Shown here piece by piece: positions 8,201 to 63,200 of a stretch of 64,000 nt of DNA; positions within the stretch are counted from its first letter, which is position 1; the number at the start of each line of letters is the position of its first letter. The notes under the pieces were generated by a model. It was not told the origin of the DNA. It was given only the letters and a program-made list of their open reading frames with translations, and did not search any database. Source of the DNA: Janibacter sp. Soil728 (lineage in GTDB: Bacteria > Actinomycetota > Actinomycetes > Actinomycetales > Dermatophilaceae); assembly GCF_001428305.1 (NCBI RefSeq), contig NZ_LMRZ01000006.1, positions 248,001 through 312,000 of the forward strand. The letters run 5' to 3'. The position numbers and the translations under genes were made by a program.

Positions 8201-8791
8201 ATGGCCCAGGTACTCCTCTTCCCCTCCGTCCTCGGCGTCCGTCGGGGCGTCACCGATCTCGCCGACGCGCTGACCGGCGCCGGGCACACCGTGACCGTCG
8301 TCGACCACCTCGCCGGCACGACCTACGACGACTACGAGCCGGCGGGGGCCCGGTCCCAGGAGATCGGCTTCCCTGCCCAGATGGCCTTTGCCCTCGAGGC
8401 GGCCAAGGGGGTCCCCGGCCCCTTCGTGGCCGTGGGCTTCTCCAACGGTGCCGGGATGGCTCAGTGGATTGCGGCCCAGCGCCCCGACGACGCCCGAGGG
8501 GTCGTGATGATCGGCGGCGGCCTGCCGATGCGCTTCCTCGAGGCCACCTGGCCGACAGGCGTCCCCGGTCAGGTGCACGTCACCTCGGAGGATCCCTTCC
8601 ACGAGGAGGACAAGCAGTTCGACGACGAGGTCCAGGACGACGTGGAGCACGCCGGGGGCGAGTTCACCTTCGTCGAGTACCAGGGCGCGGGTCACCTCTT
8701 CAACGACCCGACCCTTCCGGCGGAGTACCAGCCCGAGGAGGCGCGCATCCTCACCCGCCGCATCCTGGAGTTCGTCGACGCGGTCGGCTGA
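8201..8791 (+). CDS. Dienelactone hydrolase family alpha/beta hydrolase
   Basis: 196 residues, short and compact as usual for this family. The nucleophile elbow GFSNGAG (residues about 80-86) carries Ser instead of the Cys of classical dienelactone hydrolase. The acid is likely in TSEDPF and the His in GAGHLF (about 165-170). It probably hydrolyses a small ester or lactone in the cytoplasm. Translation looks leaderless: the ATG follows TAGGCT by 6 nt. It runs toward the PTE-like lactonase gene, and the two gene ends share a tandem repeat. The true substrate cannot be told from sequence. Confidence 0.8.
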   Translation: MAQVLLFPSVLGVRRGVTDLADALTGAGHTVTVVDHLAGTTYDDYEPAGARSQEIGFPAQMAFALEAAKGVPGPFVAVGFSNGAGMAQWIAAQRPDDARGVVMIGGGLPMRFLEATWPTGVPGQVHVTSEDPFHEEDKQFDDEVQDDVEHAGGEFTFVEYQGAGHLFNDPTLPAEYQPEEARILTRRILEFVDAVG

Positions 8792-8821
8792 CCCACCGCT
8801 CGACGGCTGACTACCGCTCGA
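8785..8821. repeat. Tandem repeat (2 x 18-19 bp) spanning both stop codons at a convergent junction
   Basis: Unit 1 (8785-8803) and unit 2 (8804-8821) are the same sequence apart from one indel/substitution at their centre: both start CGGCTGAC and end ACCGCTCGA. Unit 1 contains the TGA of the dienelactone hydrolase gene (8789-8791). Unit 2 contains the complement of the lactonase stop (8811-8813) and its last codons. Confidence 0.8.
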
Positions 8822-9773
8822 AGTACGTGCGCGGGTTCTTCACGAGCATGGTGTCGATGTCGTCCTGCGTGGCACCACCCTCGAGGAGCGCCGGGATGAC
8901 GTCCTCGCTGATGTGCCGGTAGTTCCACCGCGGCACGATCTGGCGCTTGGCCTCGGGGTCGAACCAGTCGATGAAGCACGCGGCGTCGTGGGCGAGCACC
9001 ATCTTCTCGGCGTAGCCGCGGCGCAGCAGCTCGAGGACGGTCGCGACCCGGTCCTCGAAGGGCAGGAGCACGTCCAGCCCGAAGCGGTCCATGCCCAGGT
9101 AGGAGCCGGCGTCGGCGACCTTGCACAGGTAGTCGACATCCGTCGAGTCACCGCTGTGCCCGATGACCACCTTGGTCAGATCGGCCCCCTCCTCCGCGAG
9201 GACTCGCTGCGCCACGAGTCCCGAGCCGGTGTGCGGGTTGGTGTGCACCGTGATCGGCGCGCCGCTCTGGGCGCTGGCCGCGCCGACCGCGCGCATCGCT
9301 CGCTCGACCCCGGGGGTCAGGCCCTGTTCCTCGATGGCGCACTTGAGGAACCCTGCGCGCACACCGGTGTCGGCGATGCCCTCGGTGAGGTCCTTGAGGA
9401 AGAGCTCGGTGAGCGGCTCGGGCACGTCGAAGAGCAGACCGGGTCCGCTGTAGTGGAACTGGAAGGGGATCTCGTTGTAGGTGTACAAGCCCGTCGCGAC
9501 GACGATGTTGACGTCGACCTGCTCGGCGACGCGCTGGACACGCGGGAGGTAGCGCCCCAGGCCGAGGACCGTCGGGTCGAGGATCGTGTCGATCCCCAGC
9601 CCCGGGAGCTGGGCCAGCTCCGCCACGGCCTCGGCGACCTTGGTGTCCTCGTCCCAGTCGCCCTGGTAGTTGTTCCGGAACTCCTCGCCCAGGACGAAGA
9701 TGTGCTCGTGGGCCAGCACACGGCCCAGATCGGCGGAGTCGATGCTCCCGGTCACGGTCGGTACAGCCACCAC
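8811..9773 (-). CDS. Phosphotriesterase-family protein, probable lactonase
   Basis: 320 residues from GTG 9773, preceded by AAGGAGA. Amidohydrolase-superfamily PTE fold with all expected metal ligands: His22 and His24 (AHEHIF), carboxylated Lys144 (FLKCA), His177 (VHTNP), His206 (IGHSGD) and Asp263 (AHDAAC). PTE-like lactonases hydrolyse gamma- and delta-lactones or acyl-homoserine lactones; phosphotriester hydrolysis is usually a side activity. Opening a gamma-lactone gives a 4-hydroxy acid, the presumed substrate type of the neighbouring kinase/ACAD pair, so a link is plausible but inferred. Monocistronic and converging on the dienelactone hydrolase gene. Confidence 0.85.
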   Translation of the reverse strand: MVAVPTVTGSIDSADLGRVLAHEHIFVLGEEFRNNYQGDWDEDTKVAEAVAELAQLPGLGIDTILDPTVLGLGRYLPRVQRVAEQVDVNIVVATGLYTYNEIPFQFHYSGPGLLFDVPEPLTELFLKDLTEGIADTGVRAGFLKCAIEEQGLTPGVERAMRAVGAASAQSGAPITVHTNPHTGSGLVAQRVLAEEGADLTKVVIGHSGDSTDVDYLCKVADAGSYLGMDRFGLDVLLPFEDRVATVLELLRRGYAEKMVLAHDAACFIDWFDPEAKRQIVPRWNYRHISEDVIPALLEGGATQDDIDTMLVKNPRTYFER

Positions 9774-9833
9774 GGCGCACTCTCCTTCGAGTCGGTTCCT
9801 GCGACCCTAGACCCACGTGCCCGAGTTGAAGTG

Positions 9834-10433
9834 TCAGTCGAGCCGCTCGCGCGCTGCCGGTGCGCCTGCTGCCTCCAGCCCCAGCAGCCAACGCTTGGCC
9901 TGGAGGCCACCTCGGTAGCCTCCGGCGCTGCCGTCGCTACGCACCACCCGGTGGCAGGGCAGCAGCAGCGGCACGGGGTTGTTGGCGCAGGCGCTGCCGA
10001 CGGCGCGCACCGCACGCGGCCGACCGGTCATCCCGGCCATCTCGGTGTAGGTCGCGGTGTGCCCGTAGGCGATTCGCGGCAGGGCCTCGACGACTTCACG
10101 CCGGTAGCCCGCGAGCAGCCGCAGGTCGATCGGGACGTCGAGTGACCGGCTGCGGCCGCCGAGATAGTCCTCGATCCTGCGTGCGGTCTCGTCGAGACGA
10201 CGCGGCGCCCGCAGGATGCGCGGGCTGACCCGCTCGGCGAGGTCGGCGAGCACCGCGTCGTGGCCCTCCTCCTCGAAGGCCAGACGCACCGCCCCCTGCT
10301 CCGTGGCGACGAGCAGCAGCGCCCCCAGGGGCGAGTCGACGGCCCGGTAGGCGAGGTCGATCAGGCCCACCTCACCGGCGCGCGCCACCAGGCGGTCGTG
10401 GAGACGAGCCAGGTCATCAGTCTCTGCAGTCAT
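9834..10433 (-). CDS. ogt: Methylated-DNA--protein-cysteine methyltransferase (second copy)
   Basis: 199 residues. The active site LLLPCHRVV has the acceptor Cys at residue 160, preceded by GSACANNPVP with the conserved Asn, and the DNA-binding segment ends with RAVGSA. The protein transfers alkyl groups from O6-alkylguanine onto its own Cys, a suicide repair reaction. The N-terminal part (about 1-100) is longer than in the paralogue at 10908-11432. It overlaps the sigma factor stop by 4 nt, so its synthesis is probably coupled to that gene. It is the last gene of a three-gene leftward operon. Confidence 0.9.
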   Translation of the reverse strand: MTAETDDLARLHDRLVARAGEVGLIDLAYRAVDSPLGALLLVATEQGAVRLAFEEEGHDAVLADLAERVSPRILRAPRRLDETARRIEDYLGGRSRSLDVPIDLRLLAGYRREVVEALPRIAYGHTATYTEMAGMTGRPRAVRAVGSACANNPVPLLLPCHRVVRSDGSAGGYRGGLQAKRWLLGLEAAGAPAARERLD

Positions 10434-10921
10434 CGGATCTCCTTGTCTCGCAACGATCTGAGGCCGTCACTCGCCGCCCGGCGGGCGGCGGCCTCGCTCC
10501 CGCCGACGAGGTCGACGATCCGGGCATAGGGCAGCCCCCCGAGGTAGCGATAGGTGATGACCTGCCGCTGCTTGTCCGGCAGGGCGGCGACGTGACGCCA
10601 CACCCCTTCGTCGTCGGTCTCGGCTCCCGGCGCCACGACCTCGGGCAGGTCGGCGACCGGGTCGGTGCGCCGGCGAGCCCGTGACCGGTGGATGTCGGTG
10701 CACTTCCGCTTGGCCACGGTCACCAGCCAGGCGGTCACGTCGAGGTCCCCCGGCAGGTCCGGCCACGCCGACAGCGCCGCGAGGAAGGTCTCGCTCCACG
10801 CGTCGTCGACATCGGCGGACGCGACGCGAGCCCGACACACCGCCAGCACTCGTCGACCGTGCTCCTCCACCACCTGCTCGAAGGGAGGCAGGCTCCGGGG
10901 AGTCTCCTCAGAAGAGGGCAC
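10430..10921 (-). CDS. ECF-type RNA polymerase sigma factor
   Basis: 163 residues with sigma region 2 at about 13-84 (VDDAWSETFLAAL; AWLVTVAKRKCTDIHRSRAR) and region 4 at about 106-160 (LPDKQRQVITYRYLGGLPY, then a helix-turn-helix). It has no C-terminal extension and no anti-sigma gene beside it. It overlaps the upstream alkyltransferase by 14 nt and the downstream one by 4 nt, so all three are likely translated as a unit. A role in directing transcription of an alkylation or DNA-damage response is inferred only from this linkage. Its target promoters cannot be assigned from the window. Confidence 0.85.
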   Translation of the reverse strand: MPSSEETPRSLPPFEQVVEEHGRRVLAVCRARVASADVDDAWSETFLAALSAWPDLPGDLDVTAWLVTVAKRKCTDIHRSRARRRTDPVADLPEVVAPGAETDDEGVWRHVAALPDKQRQVITYRYLGGLPYARIVDLVGGSEAAARRAASDGLRSLRDKEIR

Positions 10922-11432
10922 CGCGGTCCTCGGCGTCCGGCTCCTCGAGGGCGAGCAGCGCCCGCTTGCGGTCGAGACCGCCGCCGTACCCGGTGATCGA
11001 CCCGTCGGCCCCGATCACGCGATGGCACGGGACGATGATCGAGACCGGGTTGGCCCCGACCGCCCGGCCCACGGCCTGCGCCGCCCCTCCGGTCTCTCGG
11101 GCGAGGTCGCCGTAGCTGACCGTCTGCCCGTACGGGATCCGCTCGAGCAGCTCCCAGATGCGTCGGTGGTGCTCGCCCCCGCGCAGCTCGTAGGGGAGGT
11201 CGAAGTCCGTCCTCGTCCCGTCGAGGTACTCCTGGAGCTGGTGCGCCACCGCGGCGAGGACGGGCTCGGCCGCGACCTCGACCTCGAGTCCGTGGTCGGC
11301 CCCGTCGGGGAGGGTCCAGTGACCGGGGAAGTACAGACCGATCAGGACGCTCCCCTCGCCGGACTGCGCCTCGTCGAGCACAGCGACAAGGTCACCGAGT
11401 CGGGTCGGGAGCAGAGCGTGGCGGGTCGTCAT
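10908..11432 (-). CDS. ogt: Methylated-DNA--protein-cysteine methyltransferase (first copy)
   Basis: 174 residues from ATG 11432 (alternative ATG 11444). Motif IIVPCHRVIG with acceptor Cys136; upstream RIPYGQTVSYGDLA and AVGRAVGANPV form the winged-helix DNA-binding part with the Arg finger, as in Ogt/AGT proteins. It removes alkyl groups from O6-alkylguanine and O4-alkylthymine by irreversible self-alkylation. First gene of the Ogt-sigma-Ogt operon and divergent to the quinone reductase at 11497, with a 64-nt gap. Both paralogues keep the active Cys, so they are not redundant by decay. They share little N-terminal sequence, so they are not a recent duplication. Confidence 0.9.
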   Translation of the reverse strand: MTTRHALLPTRLGDLVAVLDEAQSGEGSVLIGLYFPGHWTLPDGADHGLEVEVAAEPVLAAVAHQLQEYLDGTRTDFDLPYELRGGEHHRRIWELLERIPYGQTVSYGDLARETGGAAQAVGRAVGANPVSIIVPCHRVIGADGSITGYGGGLDRKRALLALEEPDAEDRGALF

Positions 11433-11496
11433 GATGTCGATCATGTCCCATAGACGCATCGGGACCCGGATGTGTGAGATCGGTACTGTCCCGCTC

Positions 11497-12507
11497 ATGA
11501 GCATCCGCGCATGGCAGGTCCAGCAGCTCGGTGAAGCCGCCGACGTCCTCACCCTCGTCGACACCGAGGCCCCGCCGCCCGGCCCGGGTCAGGTGCGGGT
11601 ACGGGTGCGCGCGACCGGGGTCAACTTCGCCGACACCCTCATGTGCCGCGGGGAGTACCAGGTGCGGCCGCAACCCCCCTTCGTCCCGGGGTTGGAGGTC
11701 TGCGGTGACGTCCTCGAGGTCGGCGTCGACGTCACCCACGTCGCCGTCGGCGACCGCGTCCTCGGTGGGACCGCCGTCCCGCACGGCGGCTACGCGAGCG
11801 AGTGCCTCATGGACGGGGCGAGCACCTTCCCCGCACCCGACGGGCTGGACGACGCCGCCTGCGCGGCGCTGATGATCAGCTACCAGACGGGATGGTTCGG
11901 CCTGCACCGACGAGCGGCCCTGCGCGAAGGGGAGCACCTCCTCGTCCACGCGGCCTCCGGTGGCGTCGGGTCGGCTGCCGTCCAGCTCGGCAAGGCGGCC
12001 GGTGCGCACGTCATCGGCGTCGTCGGAGGCGCGGACAAGGTCGACATCGCCCGCAGCCTCGGGTGCGATGTCGTCATCGACCGCCGTGAGCAGGACATCA
12101 TCGAGACGGTCAAGGAGGTCACCGGCGGTCACGGCGCCGATGTCGTCTACGACCCGGTGGGCGGGCCGTCGTACGCGGCGAGCACCAAGTGCATCGCCTT
12201 CGAGGGGCGGATCATCGTCGTCGGCTTCGCCAGCGGCCGCGTCCCCGAGCCACGGCTCAACCACGCGATGGTCAAGAACTACTCGATCCTCGGCCTGCAC
12301 TGGGGCCTGTATCAGCAGCACGACCCGGCCGCGGTCGTCGCGGCCCACGCCGACCTGGTCCGCCTCGCCGATGCCGGCCACGTCGCGCCGCTCGTCGCGG
12401 AGACCTTTCCCTTCGAGGAGACACCGGCCGCGCTCGCCCGCCTCGCGGGCGGGTCGAGCACGGGCCGGATCGTCGTCACTGCATCTGGCTCATCCGCACG
12501 ACCTTGA
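11497..12507 (+). CDS. NADPH:quinone oxidoreductase-like MDR protein
   Basis: 336 residues from ATG 11497. TACTGT at 11484-11489 lies 7 nt upstream, so the mRNA may be leaderless. Zinc-free MDR features: GVNFADTLMCRGEYQV near residue 44, PFVPGLEVCGDV near 63, the nucleotide-binding motif HAASGGVGSAAVQLGKAAG near 149, and ADVVYDPVGG near 213. It reduces quinones or enones with NADPH in the cytoplasm. It ends in a short tandem repeat containing its own TGA and converges on pepN. It is probably a single-gene unit. Confidence 0.85.
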   Translation: MSIRAWQVQQLGEAADVLTLVDTEAPPPGPGQVRVRVRATGVNFADTLMCRGEYQVRPQPPFVPGLEVCGDVLEVGVDVTHVAVGDRVLGGTAVPHGGYASECLMDGASTFPAPDGLDDAACAALMISYQTGWFGLHRRAALREGEHLLVHAASGGVGSAAVQLGKAAGAHVIGVVGGADKVDIARSLGCDVVIDRREQDIIETVKEVTGGHGADVVYDPVGGPSYAASTKCIAFEGRIIVVGFASGRVPEPRLNHAMVKNYSILGLHWGLYQQHDPAAVVAAHADLVRLADAGHVAPLVAETFPFEETPAALARLAGGSSTGRIVVTASGSSARP

Positions 12508-12546
12508 GGAGATGCACCCTGGGTGCGCACGACCTTGAGGAGATGC
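12495..12546. repeat. Tandem repeat (21 bp, period 31) over the stop codon of the quinone reductase gene
   Basis: The 21-bp sequence at 12495-12515, which includes the CCTTGA end of the upstream gene, recurs exactly at 12526-12546. Between them GCACCC-T-GGGTGC (12514-12526) forms a small palindrome. The repeat ends 14 nt from the pepN stop at a convergent junction. Confidence 0.8.
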
Positions 12547-12559
12547 GGGCGAAGGGGGG

Positions 12560-15028
<2,469 letters not shown>

Positions 15029-15132
15029 CCCCGCATCCTGTCACCGTCAGTCCGTGAGCCGCGACGGGACGGGTCGCCTCGGGGTCCTAGACTGACTGGC
15101 TGCGACGAAGACGACGTGAAGGACGGAGCGGG

Positions 15133-16377: not shown

Positions 16378-16522
16378 GGCACCCGACCGACACCCGACAC
16401 ACCTCCTGTGCGTGCTGCACAACCGCGCGTACCGGAGCGTGGGCAGGCTCGCATTGCGCGGGAGGTCGGCTGGACGGTCCAATGTACGAGTCCTGACAAC
16501 GCCGTCGACCCCGGAGCTGACG

Positions 16523-18844: not shown

Positions 18845-18854
18845 GGAGCACGCC

Positions 18855-19331: not shown

Positions 19332-19351
19332 CACGCGCCCGAGCACGAGCG

Positions 19352-19384
19352 AAGGGCCCGACACCACAGCGGTGTCGGGCCCTT
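19352..19384. terminator. Bidirectional terminator hairpin (iorA / htpX convergent junction)
   Basis: Perfect inverted repeat with 14-nt arms (19352-19365 and 19371-19384) and an ACAGC loop, flanked by AA/TT, placed between converging genes. Confidence 0.9.
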
Positions 19385-19403
19385 GGTGCGTCGCGAGGTG
19401 GCC

Positions 19404-20255: not shown

Positions 20256-20278
20256 GTCTCGTCCAACGCCGCGAGGGC

Positions 20279-28554: not shown

Positions 28555-28566
28555 GGCGCGACTCTT

Positions 28567-30225: not shown

Positions 30226-31731
30226 GTGCGATCACGTACCGCAGCCGCTACCGCGGCCGCCGCTACCGCGGCCCTGGCACTCACCACCCTCGCCAGTGGG
30301 CCCGCCCAAGCAGACAACCCCAACAACTCGAAGAAGATGACGCAGGCCGTCACCGTGGAAAATGTCCACGCGCACCTGCAGGCACTGCAGGACGTCGCGG
30401 ACGCCAACGACGGCAACCGCGGTGCCGGCACCTCCGGCTACGAGGCCAGCGCGCAGTATGTCGAGAGGACGCTGCGCGACGCCGGCTACACGACGCAGCG
30501 GCAGGACTTCTCCTTCATCTACGAGGAGATCCACGAGTCCAGCCTCACCGAGGTCTCCCCCGATGCCCGCACGGTCGACGGCACCCCGATGTCGTACAGC
30601 CAGCCCACCCCGGCCGAGGGCGTCACCGCCGAGCTGGCCGCCCCGACGACGGCCATCGGCTGCGTCGCCGGTGACTACGCCGGCGCCGACGTCGCCGGGA
30701 AGATCGCGCTCGTCAGCCGCGGCGACTGCTCCTTCGCCCAGAAGGCCGTGACCGCCAAGGCCGCCGGGGCCGACGCCGTGATCATCTACAACAACACGAC
30801 CGGCGCCCTCAACGGCACGCTCGGTGGCGTCGAGCCCGACAGCGCCCCCGCCACCGGCGTCACCCAGGACGAGGGCAAGGCACTGCTCGCCAAGATGGCC
30901 ACCGGCCCGGTGACGATGAAGCTCGTCCTCACCAAGACCCTGGAGGAGCGCCAGACCTTCAACGTCATCGCCGAGACCGACTCCGGGCGCGACGACAACG
31001 TCGTCATGCTCGGTGCCCACCTCGACAGCGTCGGCGACGGCGCGGGCATCAACGACAACGGCTCCGGCACCGCCGGGATCCTCGAGACGGCCGTCCAGCT
31101 GGGCAAGGTCAACAAGCTCAACAACAAGGTCCGCTTCGCCTTCTGGGGCGCCGAGGAGCTCGGCCTGCTCGGCTCCGACCACTACGTCGCCGACCTGCAG
31201 GAGAACGACCCGGAAGCGCTGGCCGACATCGCGACCTACATGAACTTCGACATGATCGGCTCGCCCAACCACATCATCGGTGTGTACGACGCGGACGAGT
31301 CGACCTACGAGGCACCCGTCGAGGTCCCGGCGGGCTCCGCCGAGACCGAGGACGTCTTCACCGACTACTTCGACGGCATCGACCAGCCGTGGGTGGACAC
31401 GGAGTTCTCCGGCCGCAGCGACTACTCGGCCTTCATCAACGCGGGTGTCCCGGCGTCCGGTCTCTTCACCGGCGCCGACGGGACCAAGACCCCCGAGGAG
31501 GCCGAGATGTTCGGCGGTACCGCGGGGATCATCTACGACCCGAACTACCACACCCCCGCTGACGACATCAGCAACATCAACATGGACGCGCTCGACATCA
31601 TGAGCGACGCGATCGCCCACTCGACGATCACGCTCGCCCAGTCGACGAAGGCGATCAACGGCAAGTCCAGCCGTGGCAAGAGTGGCCAGCCCGCACCGAC
31701 CGTCCTGCCGGACGGCCTCGAGGCAGCCTGA
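30226..31731 (+). CDS. Secreted M28 zinc aminopeptidase with PA domain
   Basis: 501 residues from GTG 30226, chosen for the GGAGGA site 8 nt upstream; the frame is open to 30157. An Ala-rich signal peptide ends near residue 29 (GPAQA). A protease-associated domain spans about 130-220, followed by the M28 peptidase domain with zinc ligands in AHLDSVGDG, NDNGSG, GAEELG, NFDMIG and YHTPADD. It resembles Streptomyces griseus aminopeptidase. It cleaves N-terminal residues from peptides outside the cell. It has no LPXTG-type anchor. A -10-like TAGGTT lies near 30169. The gene is followed by two identical palindromes and two hairpins. Confidence 0.92.
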   Translation: MRSRTAAATAAAATAALALTTLASGPAQADNPNNSKKMTQAVTVENVHAHLQALQDVADANDGNRGAGTSGYEASAQYVERTLRDAGYTTQRQDFSFIYEEIHESSLTEVSPDARTVDGTPMSYSQPTPAEGVTAELAAPTTAIGCVAGDYAGADVAGKIALVSRGDCSFAQKAVTAKAAGADAVIIYNNTTGALNGTLGGVEPDSAPATGVTQDEGKALLAKMATGPVTMKLVLTKTLEERQTFNVIAETDSGRDDNVVMLGAHLDSVGDGAGINDNGSGTAGILETAVQLGKVNKLNNKVRFAFWGAEELGLLGSDHYVADLQENDPEALADIATYMNFDMIGSPNHIIGVYDADESTYEAPVEVPAGSAETEDVFTDYFDGIDQPWVDTEFSGRSDYSAFINAGVPASGLFTGADGTKTPEEAEMFGGTAGIIYDPNYHTPADDISNINMDALDIMSDAIAHSTITLAQSTKAINGKSSRGKSGQPAPTVLPDGLEAA

Positions 31732-31736: not shown

Positions 31737-31800
31737 TGCATTGCCCTAGGGCAATGCACGCAACGAGCACACCTGAATCCGCATTGCCCTAGGGCAATGC
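31737..31800. repeat. Two copies of palindrome GCATTGCCCTAGGGCAATGC
   Basis: Identical 20-bp perfect palindromes at 31738-31757 (extendable to 22 bp) and 31781-31800, 43 bp apart, starting 6 nt after the M28 peptidase stop. Closely related copies occur at 36026-36108. Each could form a hairpin or bind a dimeric protein. Confidence 0.85.
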
Positions 31801-33026: not shown

Positions 33027-34904
33027 ATGAGCAGCACAGCGACGACCCAGGCCAAGGATCGCGTCATCATCCGCTTCGCCGGCGACTCCGGCGACGGCAT
33101 GCAGATGACCGGCGACCGGTTCACCGCCGACAGCGCGGCCCTGGGCAATGACCTGTCCACGCTGCCCAACTTCCCCGCGGAGATCCGCGCACCCCAGGGC
33201 ACGATGGCCGGCGTCAGCTCCTTCCAGCTGCACTTCGCCAGCTGGGACATCCTCACCCCCGGCGATGCCCCCGACGTGCTCGTCGCGATGAACCCCGCAG
33301 CGCTGAAGGCCAACCTGAGCGATGTGCCGCGCGGCGCGACGATCATCGTCAACACCGACGAGTTCACCACCCGCAGCCTCAAGAAGGTCGGGTGGAGCAG
33401 CAACCCGGTCGAGGACGACACCCTCGAGTCGTGGCACGTGCACGCCGTGCCGCTGACCTCGATCACGGTCGCGGCCCTGGCGGAGTTCACCTCCTTGACG
33501 CGCAAGGAGAAGGAGCGGGCGAAGAACATGTTCGCCCTCGGCCTGCTGTCCTGGATGTACTCGCGCTCGACGACGTCCACGGAGGACTTCCTCACGTCGA
33601 AGTTCGGCGCCAAGCCCGACATCCTCGCGGCCAACCTCGCCGCGCTGCGGGCTGGCTGGAACTACGGGGAGACCACCGAGGACTTCGCCGTCCCCTTCAC
33701 CGTCGCCGCCGCCAAGACCCCTCCGGGCACCTACCGCAACATCACCGGCAGCGCGGCCCTGGCCCTGGGTCTGGTCGCCGGCGCCCACCGCGCCACCCGC
33801 CCGCTGGTCCTCGGTTCGTACCCGATCACCCCGGCCAGCGACATCCTGCACGCCCTGTCCAACTACAAGCGGCACGGCGTGACGACCGTGCAGGCCGAGG
33901 ACGAGATCGCCGCCATCGGTGTCGCGCTCGGCGCCTCCTTCGGTGGGTCGGTCGGCGTGACCACGACCTCCGGGCCCGGCGTCGCTCTGAAGTCGGAGAC
34001 CATCGGCCTGGCCGTCAGCCTCGAGCTGCCGCTGGTCATCGTCGACGTCCAGCGAGGCGGGCCGTCCACCGGCCTGCCGACCAAGACCGAGCAGTCCGAC
34101 CTGCTGCAGGCGATGTTCGGCCGCAACGGCGAGTCCCCCGTGCCGATCATCGCGCCGCAGACCTCGGCCGACTGCTTCGACGCGGCCATGGAGGCCGTGC
34201 GGATCGCCACGACCTACCGCACACCCGTCTTCCTGCTCTCCGACGGCTACCTGGCCAACGGCTCCGAGCCCTGGCAGGTCCCGGCCGTCGCCGACCTGCC
34301 GTCCTTCCCCGTGCAGCTGGCCACCGAGCCCAACGGCGTCGACGCCAAGGGGAACCCCGTCTTCCACCCCTACGTGCGCGACGAGGAGACCCTCGCCCGC
34401 CCGTGGGCCGTCCCCGGCACCCCCGGCCTGGAGCACCGCGTCGGCGGCATCGAGAAGGACGCGGTCACCGGCAACATCTCCTACGACCCGGACAACCACG
34501 ACCACATGGTCCGCACCCGCCAGGCAAAGATCGACGGGATCGCGGCCACGATCGGTGACCTGCAGGTCGACGACCCCAGCGGCGACGCCAAGGTCCTCGT
34601 CCTGGGGTGGGGCTCGACCTACGGACCCAACCTCGCGGCGGTCCGACGCCTGCGGGCAGACGGCCAGTCCGTCGCCCACGCGCACCTGCGCCACGTCAAC
34701 CCCTTCCCGAGCAACACCGGTGAGGTCCTGCGCCGCTACGACCGCGTCATCGTCCCCGAGATGAACCTCGGACAGCTGGCGATGCTGCTGCGCGCGAAGT
34801 ACCTCGTCGACGTCCGCTCCCACACCTCGGTGCGCGGTCTGCCCTTCAAGGTCGCCGACCTCGCCGAGGTCATCGACACGGCCCTCCAGGAGGTCTCGGC
34901 ATGA
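33027..34904 (+). CDS. korA: 2-oxoglutarate ferredoxin oxidoreductase, alpha (gamma-alpha fusion) subunit
   Basis: 625 residues from ATG 33027. The N-terminal gamma domain has AGDSGDGMQMTGDRF near residue 16 and the transketolase-type alpha domain begins at about 235 with GSYPITPASDILHAL (near 264), AEDEIAAIGVALGASFGG (near 291) and QRGGPSTGLPTKTEQ (near 343). Cytoplasmic KorAB oxidatively decarboxylates 2-oxoglutarate to succinyl-CoA with ferredoxin as acceptor, giving actinobacteria an alternative to the NAD-linked dehydrogenase; the oxygen-tolerant enzyme is known in Mycobacterium. It overlaps korB by 4 nt. Substrate assignment rests on the two-gene architecture. Confidence 0.92.
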   Translation: MSSTATTQAKDRVIIRFAGDSGDGMQMTGDRFTADSAALGNDLSTLPNFPAEIRAPQGTMAGVSSFQLHFASWDILTPGDAPDVLVAMNPAALKANLSDVPRGATIIVNTDEFTTRSLKKVGWSSNPVEDDTLESWHVHAVPLTSITVAALAEFTSLTRKEKERAKNMFALGLLSWMYSRSTTSTEDFLTSKFGAKPDILAANLAALRAGWNYGETTEDFAVPFTVAAAKTPPGTYRNITGSAALALGLVAGAHRATRPLVLGSYPITPASDILHALSNYKRHGVTTVQAEDEIAAIGVALGASFGGSVGVTTTSGPGVALKSETIGLAVSLELPLVIVDVQRGGPSTGLPTKTEQSDLLQAMFGRNGESPVPIIAPQTSADCFDAAMEAVRIATTYRTPVFLLSDGYLANGSEPWQVPAVADLPSFPVQLATEPNGVDAKGNPVFHPYVRDEETLARPWAVPGTPGLEHRVGGIEKDAVTGNISYDPDNHDHMVRTRQAKIDGIAATIGDLQVDDPSGDAKVLVLGWGSTYGPNLAAVRRLRADGQSVAHAHLRHVNPFPSNTGEVLRRYDRVIVPEMNLGQLAMLLRAKYLVDVRSHTSVRGLPFKVADLAEVIDTALQEVSA

Positions 34905-36004
34905 GCATCGATCTCGGCATCCCCACGGTCGCCTCCGGCACCGACGGTGTCCCCACCCTCCCCGAGGGTGAGAAGCACAACCGCAAGGACTTCACGTCCG
35001 ACCAGGAGGTGCGCTGGTGCCCCGGGTGCGGTGACTACGCGATCCTCGCCGCGGTCCAGGGCTTCCTGCCCGAGCTGGGGCTGCGCAAGGAGAACATCAC
35101 CTTCATCTCCGGCATCGGGTGCTCCTCACGCTTCCCGTACTACCTCGACACCTACGGCATGCACTCGATCCACGGGCGCGCCCCGGCGATCGCGACCGGC
35201 TTGGCCACCAGCCGCCCGGACCTGTCGGTGTGGGTCGTCACCGGCGACGGCGACGCCCTGTCGATCGGCGGCAACCACCTCATCCACGCGATGCGCCGCA
35301 ACGTCAACATGACGATCCTGCTCTTCAACAACCGGATCTACGGCCTGACCAAGGGCCAGTACAGCCCCACGTCGCAGCCCGGCCTGGTCACCAAGTCCTC
35401 GCCGATGGGCAGCGTCGATGCCGCCTTCAACCCCATCTCGCTGGCGCTCGGCGCCGAGGGCACCTTCGTCGCACGCACGATGGACTCCGACCGCAAGCAC
35501 CTCACCGAGGTGCTCAAGGCCGCTGCGGCACACCGTGGCACCTCGATCGTCGAGATCTACCAGAACTGCCCGATCTTCAACGACGGTGCCTTCGAGCTGA
35601 TCAAGGACGTCGAGCAGAAGAAGGCCCGCCTGGTCCACCTCAACGATGGCGAGCCCATCACCATCGGTGAGGACGACGAGCGTGAGGTCCTCGTCCGCGG
35701 CGAAGGGGGCTCCGTCCGGTTCGTCCGCGAGGGCGAGGTCTCCGCGCAGGGCCTGGCCGACCAGGTCGTCGTCCACGACGTCACGCTCACCGACCCCAGC
35801 CAGGCCTTCTCGATCAGCCGCCTGGACTCCGAGTCGATGACCCACGTGCCGATGGGCATCTTCCGTGCCGTCGACCGCCCCACCTACGACGACCAGACCC
35901 GCGCCCAGGTCGACGCCGCGGTCGAGCTCGCCGGCGGCCCCGCCAACGACGACGACCTGCAGTCGCTCCTCTACGGCAAGGACACCTGGACCGTCGAGGG
36001 CTGA
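34901..36004 (+). CDS. korB: 2-oxoglutarate ferredoxin oxidoreductase, beta subunit
   Basis: 367 residues from ATG 34901 in the ATGA overlap with korA. Thiamine-diphosphate/4Fe-4S subunit: WCPGCGDYAIL (near residue 38) with the first cluster Cys pair, GIGCSSRFPYY (near 70), the ThDP motif GDGDALSIGGNHLIHAMRRN (near 113) and NNRIYGLTKGQYSPTS near 142. The C-terminal 90 residues extend beyond the catalytic core, as in mycobacterial KorB. It receives electrons from the 2-oxoacid and passes them to ferredoxin. The gene is followed by three tandem palindromic units and converges on the sugar-lactone oxidase gene. Confidence 0.93.
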   Translation: MSIDLGIPTVASGTDGVPTLPEGEKHNRKDFTSDQEVRWCPGCGDYAILAAVQGFLPELGLRKENITFISGIGCSSRFPYYLDTYGMHSIHGRAPAIATGLATSRPDLSVWVVTGDGDALSIGGNHLIHAMRRNVNMTILLFNNRIYGLTKGQYSPTSQPGLVTKSSPMGSVDAAFNPISLALGAEGTFVARTMDSDRKHLTEVLKAAAAHRGTSIVEIYQNCPIFNDGAFELIKDVEQKKARLVHLNDGEPITIGEDDEREVLVRGEGGSVRFVREGEVSAQGLADQVVVHDVTLTDPSQAFSISRLDSESMTHVPMGIFRAVDRPTYDDQTRAQVDAAVELAGGPANDDDLQSLLYGKDTWTVEG

Positions 36005-36025
36005 CCGGCCCCCTCCCTTCGCCCC

Positions 36026-36115
36026 GCATTGCCATAGGGCAATGCAAGGTCGGAGTGCATCTGCCATAGGGCAATGCAAGTTCGGGGTGCATTGCCATAG
36101 GGCAATGCGTGGTCA
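36026..36115. repeat. Three tandem palindromic units (period 31-32) at the korB / oxidase junction
   Basis: Units begin at 36026, 36057 and 36089. Each holds the near-palindrome GCATTGCCATAGGGCAATGC (the second has one extra base) followed by a spacer of the form rnGKTCrGgG. In the third unit the spacer TCA (36113-36115) is the stop codon of the convergent oxidase gene. The core differs by one base from the palindromes at 31738-31800, so all five form one family. Confidence 0.85.
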
Positions 36116-41633: not shown

Positions 41634-42572
41634 GTGACCCCTCAACGTGACGCCCGTGGCGTCCTCGCCGCTTGGTTCGCCTACGGCATCTGGGGGCTCT
41701 TCCCCTTGTACTTCCACGCCCTTCGCCCTGCGGGGGCGCTGGAGATCCTGGCCCACCGGGTCGTCTGGACCTTCGTCCTGTGCGTCATCGTGCTGCTGCT
41801 GCGCACGGAGCTCATGGCGCTCCTTAGGCAGCTGCGGGGGCGGCTGGCGCTGGGCGTCGGCATCGCCGCCTACCTGATCGGCATCAACTGGTTCGTCTAC
41901 GTCTACGCCGTGGGTATCGGGCGGACCAACGAGGCGGCGCTCGGCTACTTCCTCAACCCGATCGTCACCGTCGCGCTGGGCGTGCTCGTCCTCGGCGAGC
42001 GGCTGCGCACCCTGCAGTGGGTCGCCGTCGCGATCGGTGCGCTCGCGGCCGTCTACCTCACGCTCGCCGGCGGGGGGCTGCCGTGGATCTCGCTCGTCCT
42101 CGCGATGAGCTTCGGCGGCTACGGCCTGACCAAGAAGAAGCTCGGCGCGACCCTCCCGGCCCTGCACTCCCTGTCGGCGGAGACGATCTTCCTCCTGCCG
42201 CCAGCCGTGGGACTGGTCTGGTGGCTGACGGCCCAGGGCGACTCGACCTTCACCACGGATGCCCCGTGGCACCCGCTGCTGCTCGTGTCAGCAGGGGTGA
42301 TCACCGCGGTCCCGCTGCTCTTCTTCGCCGAGGCCGCTCGCCGCATCCCGCTGGTGACGATCGGGCTCATCCAGTTCATCACCCCGGTGATCCAGCTCGT
42401 CGTCAGCGTCACCCTCCTCGGCGAGCACATCGACACCGCCCGATGGCTCGGCTTCGGGATCGTGTGGATCGCCCTCGTCTGCCTGACGGTGGACTCGCTG
42501 CGCACGGCGCGGCGGCGCCGTCGGCCCAGCCCGGACGAGTGTGAGTCGCTGGAGCCGGTCGAACCGGTCTGA
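41634..42572 (+). CDS. rarD: EamA/RarD family permease
   Basis: 312 residues from GTG 41634. Ten transmembrane helices; the RarD signature lies at the start (AYGIWGLFPLYFHALRPAGALEILAHRVVWT) and NWFVYVYAVGIGRTNEAALGYFLNPIVTV near residue 84. Members are drug/metabolite transporters of the EamA superfamily; the RarD substrate is not firmly known. The last codons (EPVEPV) and the TGA are part of the first unit of a 25-bp tandem repeat that continues to the end of the convergent prenyl-transferase gene. Confidence 0.88.
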   Translation: MTPQRDARGVLAAWFAYGIWGLFPLYFHALRPAGALEILAHRVVWTFVLCVIVLLLRTELMALLRQLRGRLALGVGIAAYLIGINWFVYVYAVGIGRTNEAALGYFLNPIVTVALGVLVLGERLRTLQWVAVAIGALAAVYLTLAGGGLPWISLVLAMSFGGYGLTKKKLGATLPALHSLSAETIFLLPPAVGLVWWLTAQGDSTFTTDAPWHPLLLVSAGVITAVPLLFFAEAARRIPLVTIGLIQFITPVIQLVVSVTLLGEHIDTARWLGFGIVWIALVCLTVDSLRTARRRRRPSPDECESLEPVEPV

Positions 42573-42640
42573 GGCGCAGCCGGTCGAACCGGCCTGAGGC
42601 ACAGCCGGTCGGACCGGCCTGAGGGGCAGAACAGCCGGTG
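42555..42640. repeat. Tandem repeat (3 x 25 bp) across the rarD stop codon
   Basis: Units at 42555-42579, 42580-42604 and 42605-42629, then a partial CAGCCGGT. Each carries CCGGTCGAACCGG or a one-base variant, an inverted repeat, followed by a CTGAGG segment. In unit 1 that TGA is the rarD stop. The array ends at the stop of the convergent polyprenyl diphosphate synthase gene (42643). Confidence 0.85.
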
Positions 42641-43647: not shown

Positions 43648-43651
43648 GAGG

Positions 43652-48773: not shown

Positions 48774-48782
48774 GGTGGCTCC

Positions 48783-59200: not shown

Positions 59201-59216
59201 GTCAGATCCGTCCTCG

Positions 59217-59579
59217 TCAGTCCCACTCGAACCCACCGCGACGCCAGACATAGGCATCAGCGATGAAGAACGCGTTGAACAGGAAAAGCACCACGGCACC
59301 GAGCGTGAAGGCCCCGAGCTCGTCGAAGGCGACGGCGAAGGGGTAGAGGAAGAGCGCCTCGATGTCGAAGATGATGAACAGCATCGCGGTCAGGTAGTAC
59401 TTGACCGAGAAGCGGCCGCCCTCAGCGGCCTGCGGCGTCGGCTGGATGCCGCACTCGTAGGCCTGGGCCTTTGCCGCGTTGTAGCGGGCCGGGCCCACGA
59501 CCAGGCTCGTCCCGACGGAGACGAGCGCGAAGCCGAGGCCGAGCGCGAAGAGGATGAGCAGCGGGATGTACGGGTTCAT
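59217..59579 (-). CDS. nuoA: NADH-quinone oxidoreductase subunit A
   Basis: 120 residues, three transmembrane helices, with the conserved loop [22 protein letters not shown] near residue 41 and [10 protein letters not shown] near 72. First gene of the complete nuoA-N operon. Its 78-nt upstream gap to the menJ-like gene contains a plausible promoter, though read-through from that gene is also possible. Confidence 0.95.
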
Positions 59580-59621
59580 CGCTGCGCCTCGCTTTCTTGT
59601 GTGTGATGCACGCCATGCCCG

Positions 59622-59649
59622 ATCCTAGGGGTGACCTGAGGCGCGTCGA
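59622..59649 (-). promoter_or_regulatory. Probable nuo operon promoter
   Basis: TCGACG (complement of 59644-59649), 16-nt spacer, TAGGAT (complement of 59622-59627), 43 nt before the nuoA start. The -10 fits actinobacterial TANNNT; the -35 matches TTGACA at four positions. Confidence 0.5.
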
Positions 59650-59657
59650 CGCCGGGC

Positions 59658-60968
59658 TCATGCATTGGGCGCCACCCGGGTCATGAGCTGGACGAGACGG
59701 TCGTCGAGACCGCCCCCCTTCTCCTCCGGCAGGTTGGCCATGAGCTTGAGCATGAACTTCATCAGGGTCTGCCGCGGCAGCCCGTACTTCGTCGCCAGGC
59801 GCATGATCTCCGGCTTGCCGATGAGCTTGGCGAACTGGGCACCGAGGGTGAAGTAGCCGCCGTGCATGTCCTTCATCCGCGCGATGTAGGAGACGAGCAC
59901 GCGCTCGCGGTCGGCGGCGGTGGGTCGGGCGAGGGCCTGGACGATCGTCTCGGCGGCGGCGTGGCCGGCCTCGAGGGCGTAGTCGATGCCCTCGCCGTTG
60001 AAGGGGTTGACCATGCCACCGGAGTCACCCACGAGCATGAGCCCGTCGGCGTAGAGCGGCTGGCGGTTGAAGGCCATGGGCAGCGCAGCTGCGGTGATCT
60101 CGCCGGTGATCGTGCCCTCGTTGATGCCCCACTCGGACGGCATCGTCTCGACCCAGCGACGCATGACGTCCTTGTAGTCGGTCCGACCGAAGGCCTCAGA
60201 CGTGTTGAGCACCCCGAGCCCGATGTTGGAGCGGCCGTCGCCCAGACCGAAGAGCCAGCCGTAACCCGGCATGAGGATGCGCCCCCCGTCGGGCGTCGGG
60301 GACCACAGCTCGAGGTGGCTCTCGAGGTACTCGTCGTCGTGGCGGGGGGTCTCGTAGTAGGCGCGCACGGCCACGGCCATCGGCCGGTCCTCGCGCTTCT
60401 CGCGGCCCATCTTCACCGACAGTCGGGAGGAGACGCCGTCAGCGGCGACGACGACGGGCGCTCGGTAGCTCTCGCGCTCCCCCGTGGCGCGCCCGCGCTC
60501 GTCGACGACCTTGGCGACGACGCCGACGATGCGGCCGTCCTCGTCACGGATCGGCTCGGAGACATTGCGTCCCTCGAGGAGCTCGGCCCCGCAGGAGGCC
60601 GCGTGCCGGGCGAGGACCTCGTCGAGGTCCTCGCGGGCCCGGACCATGCCGTAGCCGGGGAAGGAGGTGACATCGGGCCAGTCCAGCTGCAGCCGCATGC
60701 CGCCGCCGATGATGCGCAGGCCCTTGTTGTGGGCCCACCCGTCGGTCTCTGACAGGGGGATGCCGAGGTTGATCAGCTGACGCACCGCACGCGGGGTCAG
60801 GCCGTCACCGCAGATCTTGTCCCGGGGGAAGCGCGACTTCTCCAGCAGGACGACGTCCTTGCCGGCCTTCGCCAACCACGCAGCGGTGGCGCTGCCACCG
60901 GGGCCGGCTCCGACGACGATGACGTCGACACTGCGGTCGCCGTCGGCCGCAGGCAGTGAACTGGTCAC
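59658..60968 (-). CDS. menJ: Geranylgeranyl-reductase-family FAD protein (MenJ-like menaquinone reductase)
   Basis: 436 residues from GTG 60968, with GAGGAA at good spacing; the open frame to 61034 would run through the promoter. FAD motif VIVVGAGPGGSATAAWLAK near residue 15, DKICGDGLTPRAV near 55, VGDSGGMVNPFNGEGIDYAL near 310. Family members hydrogenate isoprenoid double bonds. Next to men genes and a polyprenyl diphosphate synthase the likely role is saturating menaquinone isoprenes, as MenJ does in Mycobacterium. Lipid (archaeal-type) chain reduction is unlikely in this context. A Rex-like site and promoter lie just upstream. Confidence 0.87.
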   Translation of the reverse strand: MTSSLPAADGDRSVDVIVVGAGPGGSATAAWLAKAGKDVVLLEKSRFPRDKICGDGLTPRAVRQLINLGIPLSETDGWAHNKGLRIIGGGMRLQLDWPDVTSFPGYGMVRAREDLDEVLARHAASCGAELLEGRNVSEPIRDEDGRIVGVVAKVVDERGRATGERESYRAPVVVAADGVSSRLSVKMGREKREDRPMAVAVRAYYETPRHDDEYLESHLELWSPTPDGGRILMPGYGWLFGLGDGRSNIGLGVLNTSEAFGRTDYKDVMRRWVETMPSEWGINEGTITGEITAAALPMAFNRQPLYADGLMLVGDSGGMVNPFNGEGIDYALEAGHAAAETIVQALARPTAADRERVLVSYIARMKDMHGGYFTLGAQFAKLIGKPEIMRLATKYGLPRQTLMKFMLKLMANLPEEKGGGLDDRLVQLMTRVAPNA

Positions 60969-60987
60969 GAAAGGGTTCCTCAGCTGC

Positions 60988-61005
60988 TTGTGAAGTATTT
61001 CACGA
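60988..61005. promoter_or_regulatory. Rex-like operator TTGTGAA-N4-TTCACGA
   Basis: Sequence TTGTGAAGTATTTCACGA. It matches the known Rex consensus TTGTGAANNNNTTCACAA with one change in the outer arm. It lies downstream of the -10 box and upstream of the start codon of the menJ-like gene, a position for repression. No rex gene is in the window. Confidence 0.65.
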
Positions 61006-61014
61006 TCGGCCGGA

Positions 61015-61044
61015 AGCCTACTCGCTGGACACAACCTCGGTCAC
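61015..61044 (-). promoter_or_regulatory. Possible menJ-like gene promoter
   Basis: GTGACC (complement of 61039-61044), 18-nt spacer, TAGGCT (complement of 61015-61020). Transcription would start about 61008, just before the Rex-like site, 40 nt upstream of the GTG start. Confidence 0.4.
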
Positions 61045-61087
61045 ACAGGTTGGCCTAACTTGTGCCCCAGCCGAGGCGAAAGGGCGG

Positions 61088-61780
61088 CTAGGCCTTGGTG
61101 GCCCGGTGCATCGCCACGACCCCGCCGGTCAGGTTGTTCCACTCGACATCGCCCCACCCGGCCCCGGCCACCATCTGGGCCAGCGGCTCCTGCGCCGGCC
61201 AGGACTGGATCGACTCGGCGAGGTAGACGTAGGAGTCCGGGTTGGAGCTGAGGCGGCGAGCCACCGGCGGGAATGCCGCCATGAGGTACTCGGAGTAGAC
61301 GGTGCGGAAGACCTTGTTGACCGGCTGGCTGAACTCGCAGATGAGCAGCCGACCGCCGGGGCGGGTCACCCGCAGGAACTCGCGCAGCGCCACCTCCGGC
61401 TCGACGACATTGCGGAAGCCGAAGGACATCGTCACCACGTCGAAGGACTCGTCGGCGAAGGGCAGCCGCGTCGCGTCGGCTGCGGTGAAGTGCAGCTCGG
61501 GGCTCTGCTTGAGGCCCTGGCGCAGCATCCCGAGGGAGAAGTCGGCCGAGGCAACCTCGGCGCCCGCACGGCGCAGGGGGATGGAGGAGGAGCCGGGGCC
61601 GGCGGCGATGTCGAGGATGCGCTCGCCCGGCCGGGGGGCGATGGCGCGCAGCACGGCCCGACGCCACAGCCGCGTCTGACCCAGGGACATCACGTCATTC
61701 ATCAGGTCGTACTTCGCGGCGGTCTCGTCGAACATCGCGGCGACGTCCTTGGGGTCCTTCTGCAGGGTGGCGCGACTCAT
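61088..61780 (-). CDS. menG: Demethylmenaquinone methyltransferase
   Basis: 230 residues from ATG 61780. SAM-dependent methyltransferase of the UbiE/MenG type: [19 protein letters not shown] near residue 24, motif [13 protein letters not shown] near 55, [13 protein letters not shown] near 117, and FSQPVNK near 147. It methylates demethylmenaquinone to menaquinone, the last step of the pathway. It lies upstream of the menJ-like gene on the same strand, 119 nt apart, and is divergent to menF with a 41-nt gap. Confidence 0.92.
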
Positions 61781-61821
61781 GTGCTCATCTTCGCACCTAC
61801 GGTCGTAGGCTGTTGCCCGCC

Positions 61822-63123
61822 ATGACCTCACCATCGCCCGTCGACGTCCCCCACCCGCTCGGCTCCCCGCACCCGGCATTGGTCGTGCGCACCGTCGCCG
61901 TCCCGGTCACCCGCGTCGGCCACCTGCTGGCACTGCTCCCGGAGCCCGAGGACGCCGGCGACATCGTCTCCTGGGTACGCAAGGGCGAGGGCCTGGTCGG
62001 CTGGGGCCGCGTGGCCACCTTCCGCGCGACCGGGGCCGACCGCTTCGAACGGGCCCAGGCGTGGTGGCGTGATGTGACGGCCGAGGCGATCGTGCGCGAC
62101 GACGTCGACGAGCCCGGCACGGGGCCGATCGCCTTCGGGTCGATGGCCTACTCCCGTCGCTCCGAGACCGAGTCCGTGCTCGTCGTGCCCGAGGTCGTCG
62201 TCGGACGCCGCGGGGACCTCGCCTGGATCACGACGACCACCACCGACTCCACGGTCCCGCCGGCCGACGAGCCGCTCACCGCCCAGCCCGGGCCCCGCGA
62301 CCCGGGAGAGGTCACCTTCGTCGACCGCGACCTGAGCGCCGAGCGTTGGGCAGGTGCGGTCGACGAGGCCGTCGCCCGGATCAGCACCGGCGACCTCGAC
62401 AAGGTCGTCCTCGCCCGGGCCGTCCAGGCCACCGCCCAGCAGCGCATCGACCCCCGCTGGCTCCTCACCCGGCTGGTCGAGGACTACGACACGACCTGGG
62501 TCTTCGCCGTCGACGGGCTCGTGGGGGCCACCCCCGAGATGCTCGTCCGGCTCGAGCGTGGCCTGGTCACCTCGCGTGTGCTCGCCGGCACGATCCGCCG
62601 CACCGGCGACGACAGCCACGACCTGGCCCTCGCCGGGTCGCTGGCCCGCAGCAGCAAGGACCTCGAGGAGCACGAGTACGCGGTGCGCTCGGTGGCCGAC
62701 GCGCTGACGGCGCACACCTCGTCGATCAACGTGCCGGAGACCCCCTTCGTCCTGCACCTCAACAACGTCATGCACCTGGCGACCGATGTCGCGGGCGTCG
62801 TGCGTGACGGGTCGACCTCGCTGGCGCTGGCCGCGTCGCTGCACCCCTCGGCCGCCGTGTGCGGCACCCCGACGACGGACGCCGACGCCGTCATCGCCGA
62901 GCTGGAGCAGATGGACCGGGGCCGCTACGCCGGGCCGGTCGGCTGGATGGACGCCTCCGGCGACGGCGAGTGGGGCATCGCCCTGCGCTGCGGCTGGTAC
63001 GACAACCCGCAGTCCCTGCGCCTGTACGCCGGCTGCGGCATCGTGGCGGGATCGGTCGCCGAGGACGAGGTCGCCGAGTCGGTGGCCAAGCTGATGCCGA
63101 TGCGCTCCGCGCTGGGCGGCTGA
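61822..63123 (+). CDS. menF: Isochorismate synthase
   Basis: 433 residues from ATG 61822. TAGGCT at 61806-61811 ends 10 nt upstream, so the transcript has almost no leader, and I see no ribosome-binding site. Chorismate-binding enzyme: [13 protein letters not shown] near residue 194, [24 protein letters not shown] near 237, [14 protein letters not shown] near 340 and [18 protein letters not shown] near 370. It converts chorismate to isochorismate, the first committed step of menaquinone synthesis. No salicylate or siderophore genes are nearby, so MenF rather than EntC is preferred. Confidence 0.9.
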
Positions 63124-63134
63124 GCGCTCCCCCT

Positions 63135-63200
63135 CGTCAGCGCGAGAGCGCCGCTTCGTCAGCGCGAGAGCGCCGCTTCGTCAGCGCGAGAGCGCCGCGA
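63135..63200. repeat. Tandem repeat (3 x 22 bp) over the menD stop codon
   Basis: Units at 63135-63156, 63157-63178 and 63179-63200. Each contains CGTCAGCGCGAGAGCGCCGC. The third unit is the coding end of menD itself, including its TGA (63181-63183). Each unit holds GCGC-GAGA-GCGC, able to form a short hairpin. It lies between converging menF and menD. Confidence 0.88.

What the first reader, a model, noticed from the sequence alone, without database searches (positions are those of the whole stretch)
8785..63200. Short tandem repeats anchored on stop codons at five of seven convergent gene junctions
The arrays are at 8785-8821 (2 units), 12495-12546 (2), 36026-36115 (3), 42555-42640 (3) and 63135-63200 (3). 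Each has its own sequence and period (18-19, 31, 31-32, 25 and 22 bp). In each, one unit contains the end of a flanking gene including its stop codon, so the array looks like repeated duplication of a gene 3' end. The two remaining convergent junctions (2210-2245, 19352-19384) have long perfect hairpins instead. The arrays resemble mycobacterial MIRU loci in overlapping stop codons, but their sequences are unrelated to each other. They may be slippage products kept because they end transcription in both directions, and could vary between strains.
Basis: partly seen in the sequence, partly recalled or inferred. Interest (0 to 1): 0.78.

Follow-up and report, generated by a model that had tools for sequence, protein, structure and literature searches.

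The report
Species-specific palindrome arrays at gene ends
In bacteria of the genus Janibacter, short mirror-image DNA repeats sit in evenly spaced rows where two genes end facing each other, and related species carry different versions, some swapped at the very same place; the five repeats first noticed are a mixture of these and of ordinary local duplications.

Summary
All five arrays exist, and tandem arrays are enriched at convergent junctions: 15 of 169 convergent against 14 of 678 codirectional in this genome's sample outside the window, and 13 of 168 against 12 of 717 in samples of three congeners. But the five are two things. Those at 8785, 42553 and 63134 are local duplications of a gene 3' end; the last two are in 0 of 14 readable congeners each. 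Those at 12496 and 36026, plus a missed pair at 31738, belong to one dispersed 20-bp superfamily, GCA-NNN-SC-NNNN-GS-NNN-TGC, with about 146 places of one family in this genome and no excess in 77 loci from mostly other genera. The dominant NNN triplets differ between species. Neighbouring units stand 30-32 or 41-44 bp apart in 46 of 47 clusters. Against a near sister species, 7 of 8 occupied junctions are shared, 4 of them with the other family in place; with a more distant one sharing is low. It resembles REP/BIME elements but lacks their GTAG head and transposase. Ending transcription is plausible but untested.

The parts
8785..8821 (.). Local 2-copy duplication (18/19 bp) covering the stop codons of both convergent genes (8201-8791 + and 8811-9719 -)
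   Evidence: same two copies in 2 of 10 readable congeners (G015, G010); G012 has a longer degenerate form; the other 7 have a 3-15 nt gap
12496..12515 (+). Superfamily unit, family B (GCACGACC/GCATCTCC half-sites); its core supplies the TGA stop (12505-12507) of the left gene
12527..12546 (+). Second family B unit, 31 bp downstream of the first
31738..31757 (+). Superfamily unit, family A, just after the stop of 30337-31731 (codirectional junction; not in the finding)
31781..31800 (+). Second family A unit, 43 bp from the first
36026..36045 (+). Superfamily unit, family A (GCATTGCC-ATAG-GGCAATGC)
36058..36077 (+). Diverged family A unit
36089..36108 (+). Third family A unit; the stop of the minus-strand gene follows at 36113-36115
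42553..42629 (+). Local 3-copy, 25-bp duplication; copy 1 is the 3' end of gene 41706-42572; each copy has a small palindrome and a TGA
   Evidence: 3 places genome-wide, all here; this array in 0 of 14 readable congeners
63134..63198 (-). Local 3-copy perfect 22-bp duplication; copy 3 is the 3' end of the minus gene 63181-63990
   Evidence: 3 forward places genome-wide, all here; the backwards-read control also had 3; 0 of 14 readable congeners
2210..2245 (.). Long perfect hairpin at a convergent junction without units
   Evidence: (z -5.2)
19352..19384 (.). Long perfect hairpin at a convergent junction without units
   Evidence: (z -5.4)

Best explanation
Two processes overlap at convergent junctions of this Janibacter genome. 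(1) Shown: a superfamily of dispersed 20-bp palindromic units (two half-sites GCA-NNN-S-C around a 4-bp core) sits just downstream of genes, with the highest share between convergent genes, as single units or clusters spaced 30-32 or 41-44 bp. The dominant version differs between species, and at some shared sites one version stands where a sister species has another. Inferred: the units behave like REP/BIME elements. Copies are dispersed as units or doublets, survive where they do least harm (after stop codons), grow by tandem duplication, and new copies preferentially enter or overwrite existing arrays; transcribed, they form 3'-end hairpins that mark the end of both transcripts. The machinery that moves them is unknown and is not the usual RAYT. 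(2) Shown: three arrays in the window are local duplications of a gene's 3' end, two of them not seen in any readable congener. Inferred: they arise by slippage and persist because the junction tolerates them.
For: Dispersal: the family A core matches 146 forward places in this genome at up to 3 mismatches, control 0; family B 24 forward and 13 reverse, control 2 and 3, and 161 forward plus 114 reverse in G012, control 4 and 1. Location, four-species samples: unit-bearing junctions are 41 of 344 convergent, 24 of 1440 codirectional and 1 of 341 divergent; 126 of 147 unit midpoints lie from -40 to +100 nt of a gene 3' end. Different versions per species. Replacement in place: among junctions paired with G012, 7 of 8 occupied here are occupied there, against 2 of 125 empty here (6 and 19 convergent, 2 and 106 codirectional; pooled p = 2e-9); 4 of the 7 carry family A here and family B there. 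Mobility: one junction (L195 against L029) differs by 58 bp, an inverted doublet read by eye, in closely matching flanks. Structure: the three A arrays and three G012 arrays that I folded have z -3.9 to -9.6; flank bases 1-3 pair beyond shuffles in this genome, and some flank positions in G009. Local arrays.
Against: No mobilising enzyme was found: Y1_Tnp (PF01797) in 0 of 16 Janibacter genomes. Pairing is not uniformly kept: inner positions 4-6 pair in only 9, 10 and 7 of 31 units in G012 and 10, 6 and 5 of 25 in G007; the own 12496 array and three of four G007 folds are not clearly better than shuffles. Sharing of sites is weak with more distant G009: outside the window 1 of 4 own-occupied convergent junctions is shared (1 of 5 counting one G012 pair), and five junctions are occupied only in the other species. 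At the 12507 junction G009 carries B-like units although AAA/AGA/GGA units dominate its sample, so arrays do not always follow the dominant version. Junctions with units do not significantly lack other hairpins (7 of 38 against 45 of 149, p = 0.16). The array excess over other genera is not significant (32 of 344 against 9 of 167, p = 0.16). No transcript data.
Confidence: 0.6

Rival explanations
1. The arrays are phased binding sites for a sequence-specific DNA-binding protein (nucleoid, topoisomerase-recruiting or termination factor) at convergent junctions; a change of the protein's specificity between species drives sites to the new version.
For: Spacing of about 3 or 4 helical turns in 46 of 47 clusters across four species although spacers mostly differ in sequence between loci (by eye); outer GCA/TGC and inner C/G positions shared with variable triplets; asymmetric half-site pairs frequent in the G012 and G007 samples; site kept while sequence switches.
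Against: No protein identified. Coordinated change of 100-300 sites by selection is hard, while dispersal of copies explains within-species sameness simply. Spacing can also reflect a duplicated doublet, and the periodicity test does not single out 10.5 bp. Sites are gained and lost.
Confidence: 0.2
2. They are ordinary rho-independent, bidirectional terminators, tandemly duplicated by slippage; dispersal is only convergence on good hairpins.
For: 3'-end location; strong folding of A arrays; two other junctions have long hairpins; stems of 8 bp or more at 72 of 187 convergent against 101 of 601 codirectional and 35 of 314 divergent junctions.
Against: The same 20-mer at about 146 places, control 0, is copying, not convergence. 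Asymmetric families break the stem. The 63134 array folds no better than shuffles and the 12496 array little better. Spacing register is unexplained.
Confidence: 0.15
3. Convergent junctions are simply permissive: any tandem duplication or insertion survives there because neither promoter nor coding sequence is hit.
For: Loci of mostly other actinobacterial genera show an excess too: 9 of 167 convergent, 18 of 931 codirectional, 3 of 146 divergent, not significantly lower than in Janibacter. The three local arrays fit this.
Against: Does not explain spacing register, differing versions, or replacement in place. Units are scarcer at codirectional junctions, which also have free 3' ends (24 of 1440).
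Confidence: 0.3

Closest known systems
REP / BIME elements (GTAG- and CGTC-tagged; PMC3733652, PMC2817692: passages seen)
   Same: 20-40 bp palindromes, over 100 copies per genome, downstream of genes, mostly between convergent and unidirectional genes, single or clustered with regular spacing, some families species-specific; CGTC family 1 also has an 8-bp stem and 4-bp loop
   Different: No GT[A/G]G head (0 of 136 flanks here), CGTC near only 15 of 136 flanks, Y1 transposase found in 0 of 16 genomes, asymmetric half-site pairs in some species, in-place replacement between sister species
REPINs (REP doublets; PMC3116915, search listing only; movement by RAYT recalled)
   Same: Doublets can form long hairpins; one presence/absence of a 58-bp inverted doublet
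   Different: No RAYT found; many clusters are not simple inverted doublets; tandem arrays of up to 9 units
Mycobacterial MIRU
   Same: Tandem arrays overlapping stop codons, variable copy number
   Different: Longer units and other sequence by recall; ours are 20-bp palindromes with about 11-bp spacers; no sequence comparison was made

Membership tests
REP/BIME | Short palindrome in over 100 extragenic copies | tested here: met
   146 forward places of family A here; 161 + 114 of family B in G012; excess over control in noncoding sequence of the samples
REP/BIME | Located downstream of genes, convergent and unidirectional, rarely divergent | tested here: met
   41 of 344 convergent, 24 of 1440 codirectional, 1 of 341 divergent junctions
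REP/BIME | GT[A/G]G (or CGTC) head beside the palindrome | tested here: not met
   GT[A/G]G within 8 nt in 0 of 136, 2 of 54, 0 of 44, 5 of 46 flanks; CGTC in 15 of 136, 5 of 54, 1 of 44, 0 of 46
REP/BIME | Associated REP-specific Y1 transposase (RAYT, PF01797) | tested here: not met
   0 of 16 Janibacter genomes; positive in 5 of 14 control genomes
REP/BIME | Regular spacing in clusters, alternating orientation | tested here: inconclusive
   Spacing met: 46 of 47 clusters at 30-32 or 41-44 bp. Orientation looked mixed by eye and was not counted
Intrinsic bidirectional terminator | Stable hairpin in RNA | tested here: inconclusive
   Strong for the A, G009 and G012 arrays folded; weak for 12496, 63134 and three of four G007 folds
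Intrinsic bidirectional terminator | Transcript ends at the element | not testable with these tools
   No transcriptome data held
MIRU | MIRU sequence and length | not tested

The most novel reading that the evidence does not exclude
A genus-wide system of helically phased, bipartite DNA sites at convergent gene ends whose recognition triplets change between species while many occupied sites stay put, implying an unidentified sequence-specific factor (binding protein or non-RAYT mobiliser) that rewrites existing arrays to its current target.
Probability: 0.25. Interest if true: 0.8.

Novelty: new variant of a known kind. Interest (0 to 1): 0.55.

Why it matters
REP elements with a GT[A/G]G head are linked to RAYT transposases (PMC2817692, passages). 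Here is an abundant REP-like superfamily in an actinobacterial genus in which that transposase was not found, with a fixed spacing register and switching of versions at shared sites between sister species. Sixteen genomes of the genus give a natural series in which to find what copies, reads and positions such repeats, and to test directly whether they end transcription or manage supercoiling between convergent genes.

Tried and rejected
Classic RAYT/REP: rejected as a membership claim (PF01797 in 0 of 16 genomes; head absent). Known RNA family: no Rfam match at gathering threshold in the window. All five arrays as one repeat class: rejected, since the 42553 and 63134 units were found only in their own arrays at up to 3 mismatches; the 8785 unit was compared with congeners only, not searched genome-wide. 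Purely local slippage: rejected for 12496 and 36026. Unit presence instead of other hairpins: not significant (p = 0.16). Gene flanked by units as a mobiliser: one such gene in the four samples, a DUF559 protein (Pfam E 1.6e-5), and its three relatives there have no units near them; not pursued. My 'dispersed/local' split of TRF arrays by shared 12-mers is unreliable in GC-rich DNA (it labels the 8785 and 42553 arrays dispersed), so I use only its totals. A strand pattern in the listing was not used because the listing is cut off. Periodicity scores do not single out 10.5 bp; the claim rests on the two spacing classes only.

Caveats: genes were called with my own codon-score script, not by an annotation pipeline. 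Unit consensus lists were chosen from the same data. Spacings exclude sites closer than 15 bp and gaps over 110 bp. Units inside one array are not independent in the flank test. Of the 8 junctions occupied here in the G012 comparison, 3 lie in the window and 4 more in stretches fetched because this genome has units there; only L026 came from the spaced samples. The 77 loci come from one gene neighbourhood each; one bears the name Janibacter (sp. HTCC2649, 75% identity to the query).

Literature: eight searches. PMC3733652, PMC2817692 and PMC1525189 were seen as passages only; all other papers as search listings. None of the listed papers was, by title and start of abstract, about such repeats in Janibacter.
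Full report
What the window is. It lies in a 3.64-Mb, 10-contig genome; the window has 70.6% GC. Its protein 34901-36004 is 95% identical to Janibacter limosus and 92% to J. hoylei and J. indicus, so I treat it as a Janibacter species. Gene calls give seven convergent junctions. The ten genes at the five array junctions match ordinary enzyme, transporter and peptidase families; one of them (63181-63990) only weakly, below its family's cut-off.

Checking the arrays. Four of the five are TRF rows with the stated periods; the fifth is two identical 20-mers 31 bp apart. Enrichment was tested on 1.22 Mb of this genome including the window. Arrays of period 15 or more and score 60 or more occur at 19 of 176 convergent, 14 of 723 codirectional and 2 of 172 divergent junctions; without the window 15 of 169, 14 of 678 and 2 of 165. 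In 400-kb samples of three other species together: 13 of 168, 12 of 717 and 2 of 169. In 77 loci of mostly other genera: 9 of 167, 18 of 931 and 3 of 146. So an excess at convergent junctions is seen outside the genus too. The Janibacter share (32 of 344) is higher in number but not significantly (p = 0.16).

Two classes of array. The units at 42553 and 63134 match three places each in the whole genome, all inside their own array. Among 14 readable congeners for each junction none has either array; G010 has a different short duplication at the 42572 stop codon, my reading. The 8785 duplication is shared with 2 of 10 readable congeners. These three fit duplication of a gene 3' end.

The 36026 unit is different: its 20-bp core matches 146 forward and 146 reverse places at up to 3 mismatches, control 0. 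As the core is nearly its own reverse complement, these are largely the same sites. The 12496 unit matches 24 forward and 13 reverse places, control 2 and 3. Both fit GCA-NNN-SC-NNNN-GS-NNN-TGC. In noncoding sequence (with the last 40 nt of genes) this pattern occurs 62, 22, 27 and 24 times in the samples of G000, G012, G009 and G007, reversed-pattern control 8, 3, 6 and 5. In the 77 other loci it occurs 4 times, control 6. The dominant triplets differ by species: TTG/TTG here, CGA/TCT in G012, AAA, AGA or GGA in G009, ACT/GGA in G007, TTT/TTT in J. hoylei. Family A is absent at this tolerance from 6 of 15 congeners and from 13 of 13 genomes of other genera. Family B is commonest in G012 (161 forward, 114 reverse), then G015 (41, 35) and this genome (22, 15). 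The ACT/GGA family is commonest in G007, G013 and G014 (114 + 99, 58 + 40, 22 + 29).

Anatomy. Neighbouring units are 30-32 bp (51), 41-44 bp (21) or 36-37 bp (4) apart, 76 spacings in all. By first spacing, 46 of 47 clusters fall in the two main classes, close to three and four helical turns; the periodicity scores themselves do not single out 10.5 bp. Spacers mostly differ in sequence between loci (by eye). 126 of 147 unit midpoints lie from 40 nt before to 100 nt after a gene 3' end. In 9 of 147 units a called stop codon falls inside the unit, in 9 of 9 in the core; 12505-12507 is such a case. That is one reason why arrays look anchored on stop codons. In this genome flank positions 1-3 are complementary in 46, 44 and 42 of 71 units against shuffle means of 34.6, 27.8 and 25.9. 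In G012 and G007 the inner triplets usually do not pair, but the self-complementary cores of neighbouring units can, and the three G012 arrays folded have z -4.6 to -7.5. Against a uniform hairpin role, the own 12496 array has z -0.5 and -1.8, and the two G007 arrays folded -1.6, -0.9, -3.1 and 0.0.

Same place, other version. At junction 12507/12560, 6 of 9 readable congeners carry units: 9 in G012, 4 in G004, 3 in G009 and G006, 2 in G014, 1 in G010. At 36004/36113, 5 of 13 do: G012 5, G004 3, G006 1, G014 2, G007 6 (counted by eye). Most use the version common in their own genome, where that is known; G009 at 12507 does not, carrying B-like units. At the other three array junctions only G008 at 42572 shows units. 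G012, one of the nearest congeners (93% protein identity; G015 and G010 are similarly near), was compared in more detail, using 23 stretches fetched before and 8 chosen because this genome has units there (3 of the 8 gave no paired site). 7 of 8 junctions occupied here are occupied there, against 2 of 125 empty here. At 4 of the 7 (36026, L035, L036, L043) this genome has family A and G012 family B, at two both have B, at one both have A. A reversed-consensus control hit 0 of 306 regions. With G009 sharing is low: outside the window 1 of 4. One junction differs by 58 bp, an inverted doublet present in G012 and absent here, in closely matching flanks.

Interpretation. The pattern of copy number, extragenic 3' location and species-specific stems is that of REP/BIME elements (PMC3733652, PMC2817692, passages). 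The GT[A/G]G head and the Y1 transposase were not found, so I call it REP-like, not REP. I commit to dispersal and tandem growth of palindromic units that preferentially renew existing arrays, with a 3'-end hairpin role inferred (0.6). The phased spacing and the switching of versions at fixed sites leave room for an unknown sequence-specific factor (0.25). PMC1525189 (passages) states that REPs bind DNA gyrase and IHF and often lie between convergent genes, where supercoiling is high; a similar role is possible here and untested.

Noticed in passing
window 31738-31800: A pair of family A units 43 bp apart at a codirectional junction, not in the finding; G012 has one diverged unit there.
   Followed up: yes
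L014:6605-8326 and 4872-6608 (minus strand): Units lie inside called ORFs of two adjacent ABC transporter genes; in one, four units at a 30-bp period fall between the membrane and ATPase domains, so they may be translated as a linker.
   Followed up: partly
L012:11074, L031:7935, L037:14700, L052:19172, L003:9419: A second dispersed hairpin motif around CTCCCTGAGGAG/CTCCTCAGGGAG builds other junction arrays.
   Followed up: no
genome sample, e.g. window 2210-2245 and near 36010: CCCCCTTCG/CGAAGGGGG is among the commonest intergenic 12-mers and forms or flanks hairpins at junctions.
   Followed up: no
L009:11752-11945; L168 junction: GTGGAGGTAAAC is repeated in intergenic DNA (13 copies in the sample), with a related repeat in congener G001.
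   Followed up: no
L014:18851-19798: A DUF559 protein gene has unit doublets on both sides; three relatives in the samples have none near.
   Followed up: partly
L166 junction (G013): A longer inverted-repeat-like stretch with GGTTGAGGAG...CTCGAAGCC at the 36004 orthologue, unlike the units.
   Followed up: no
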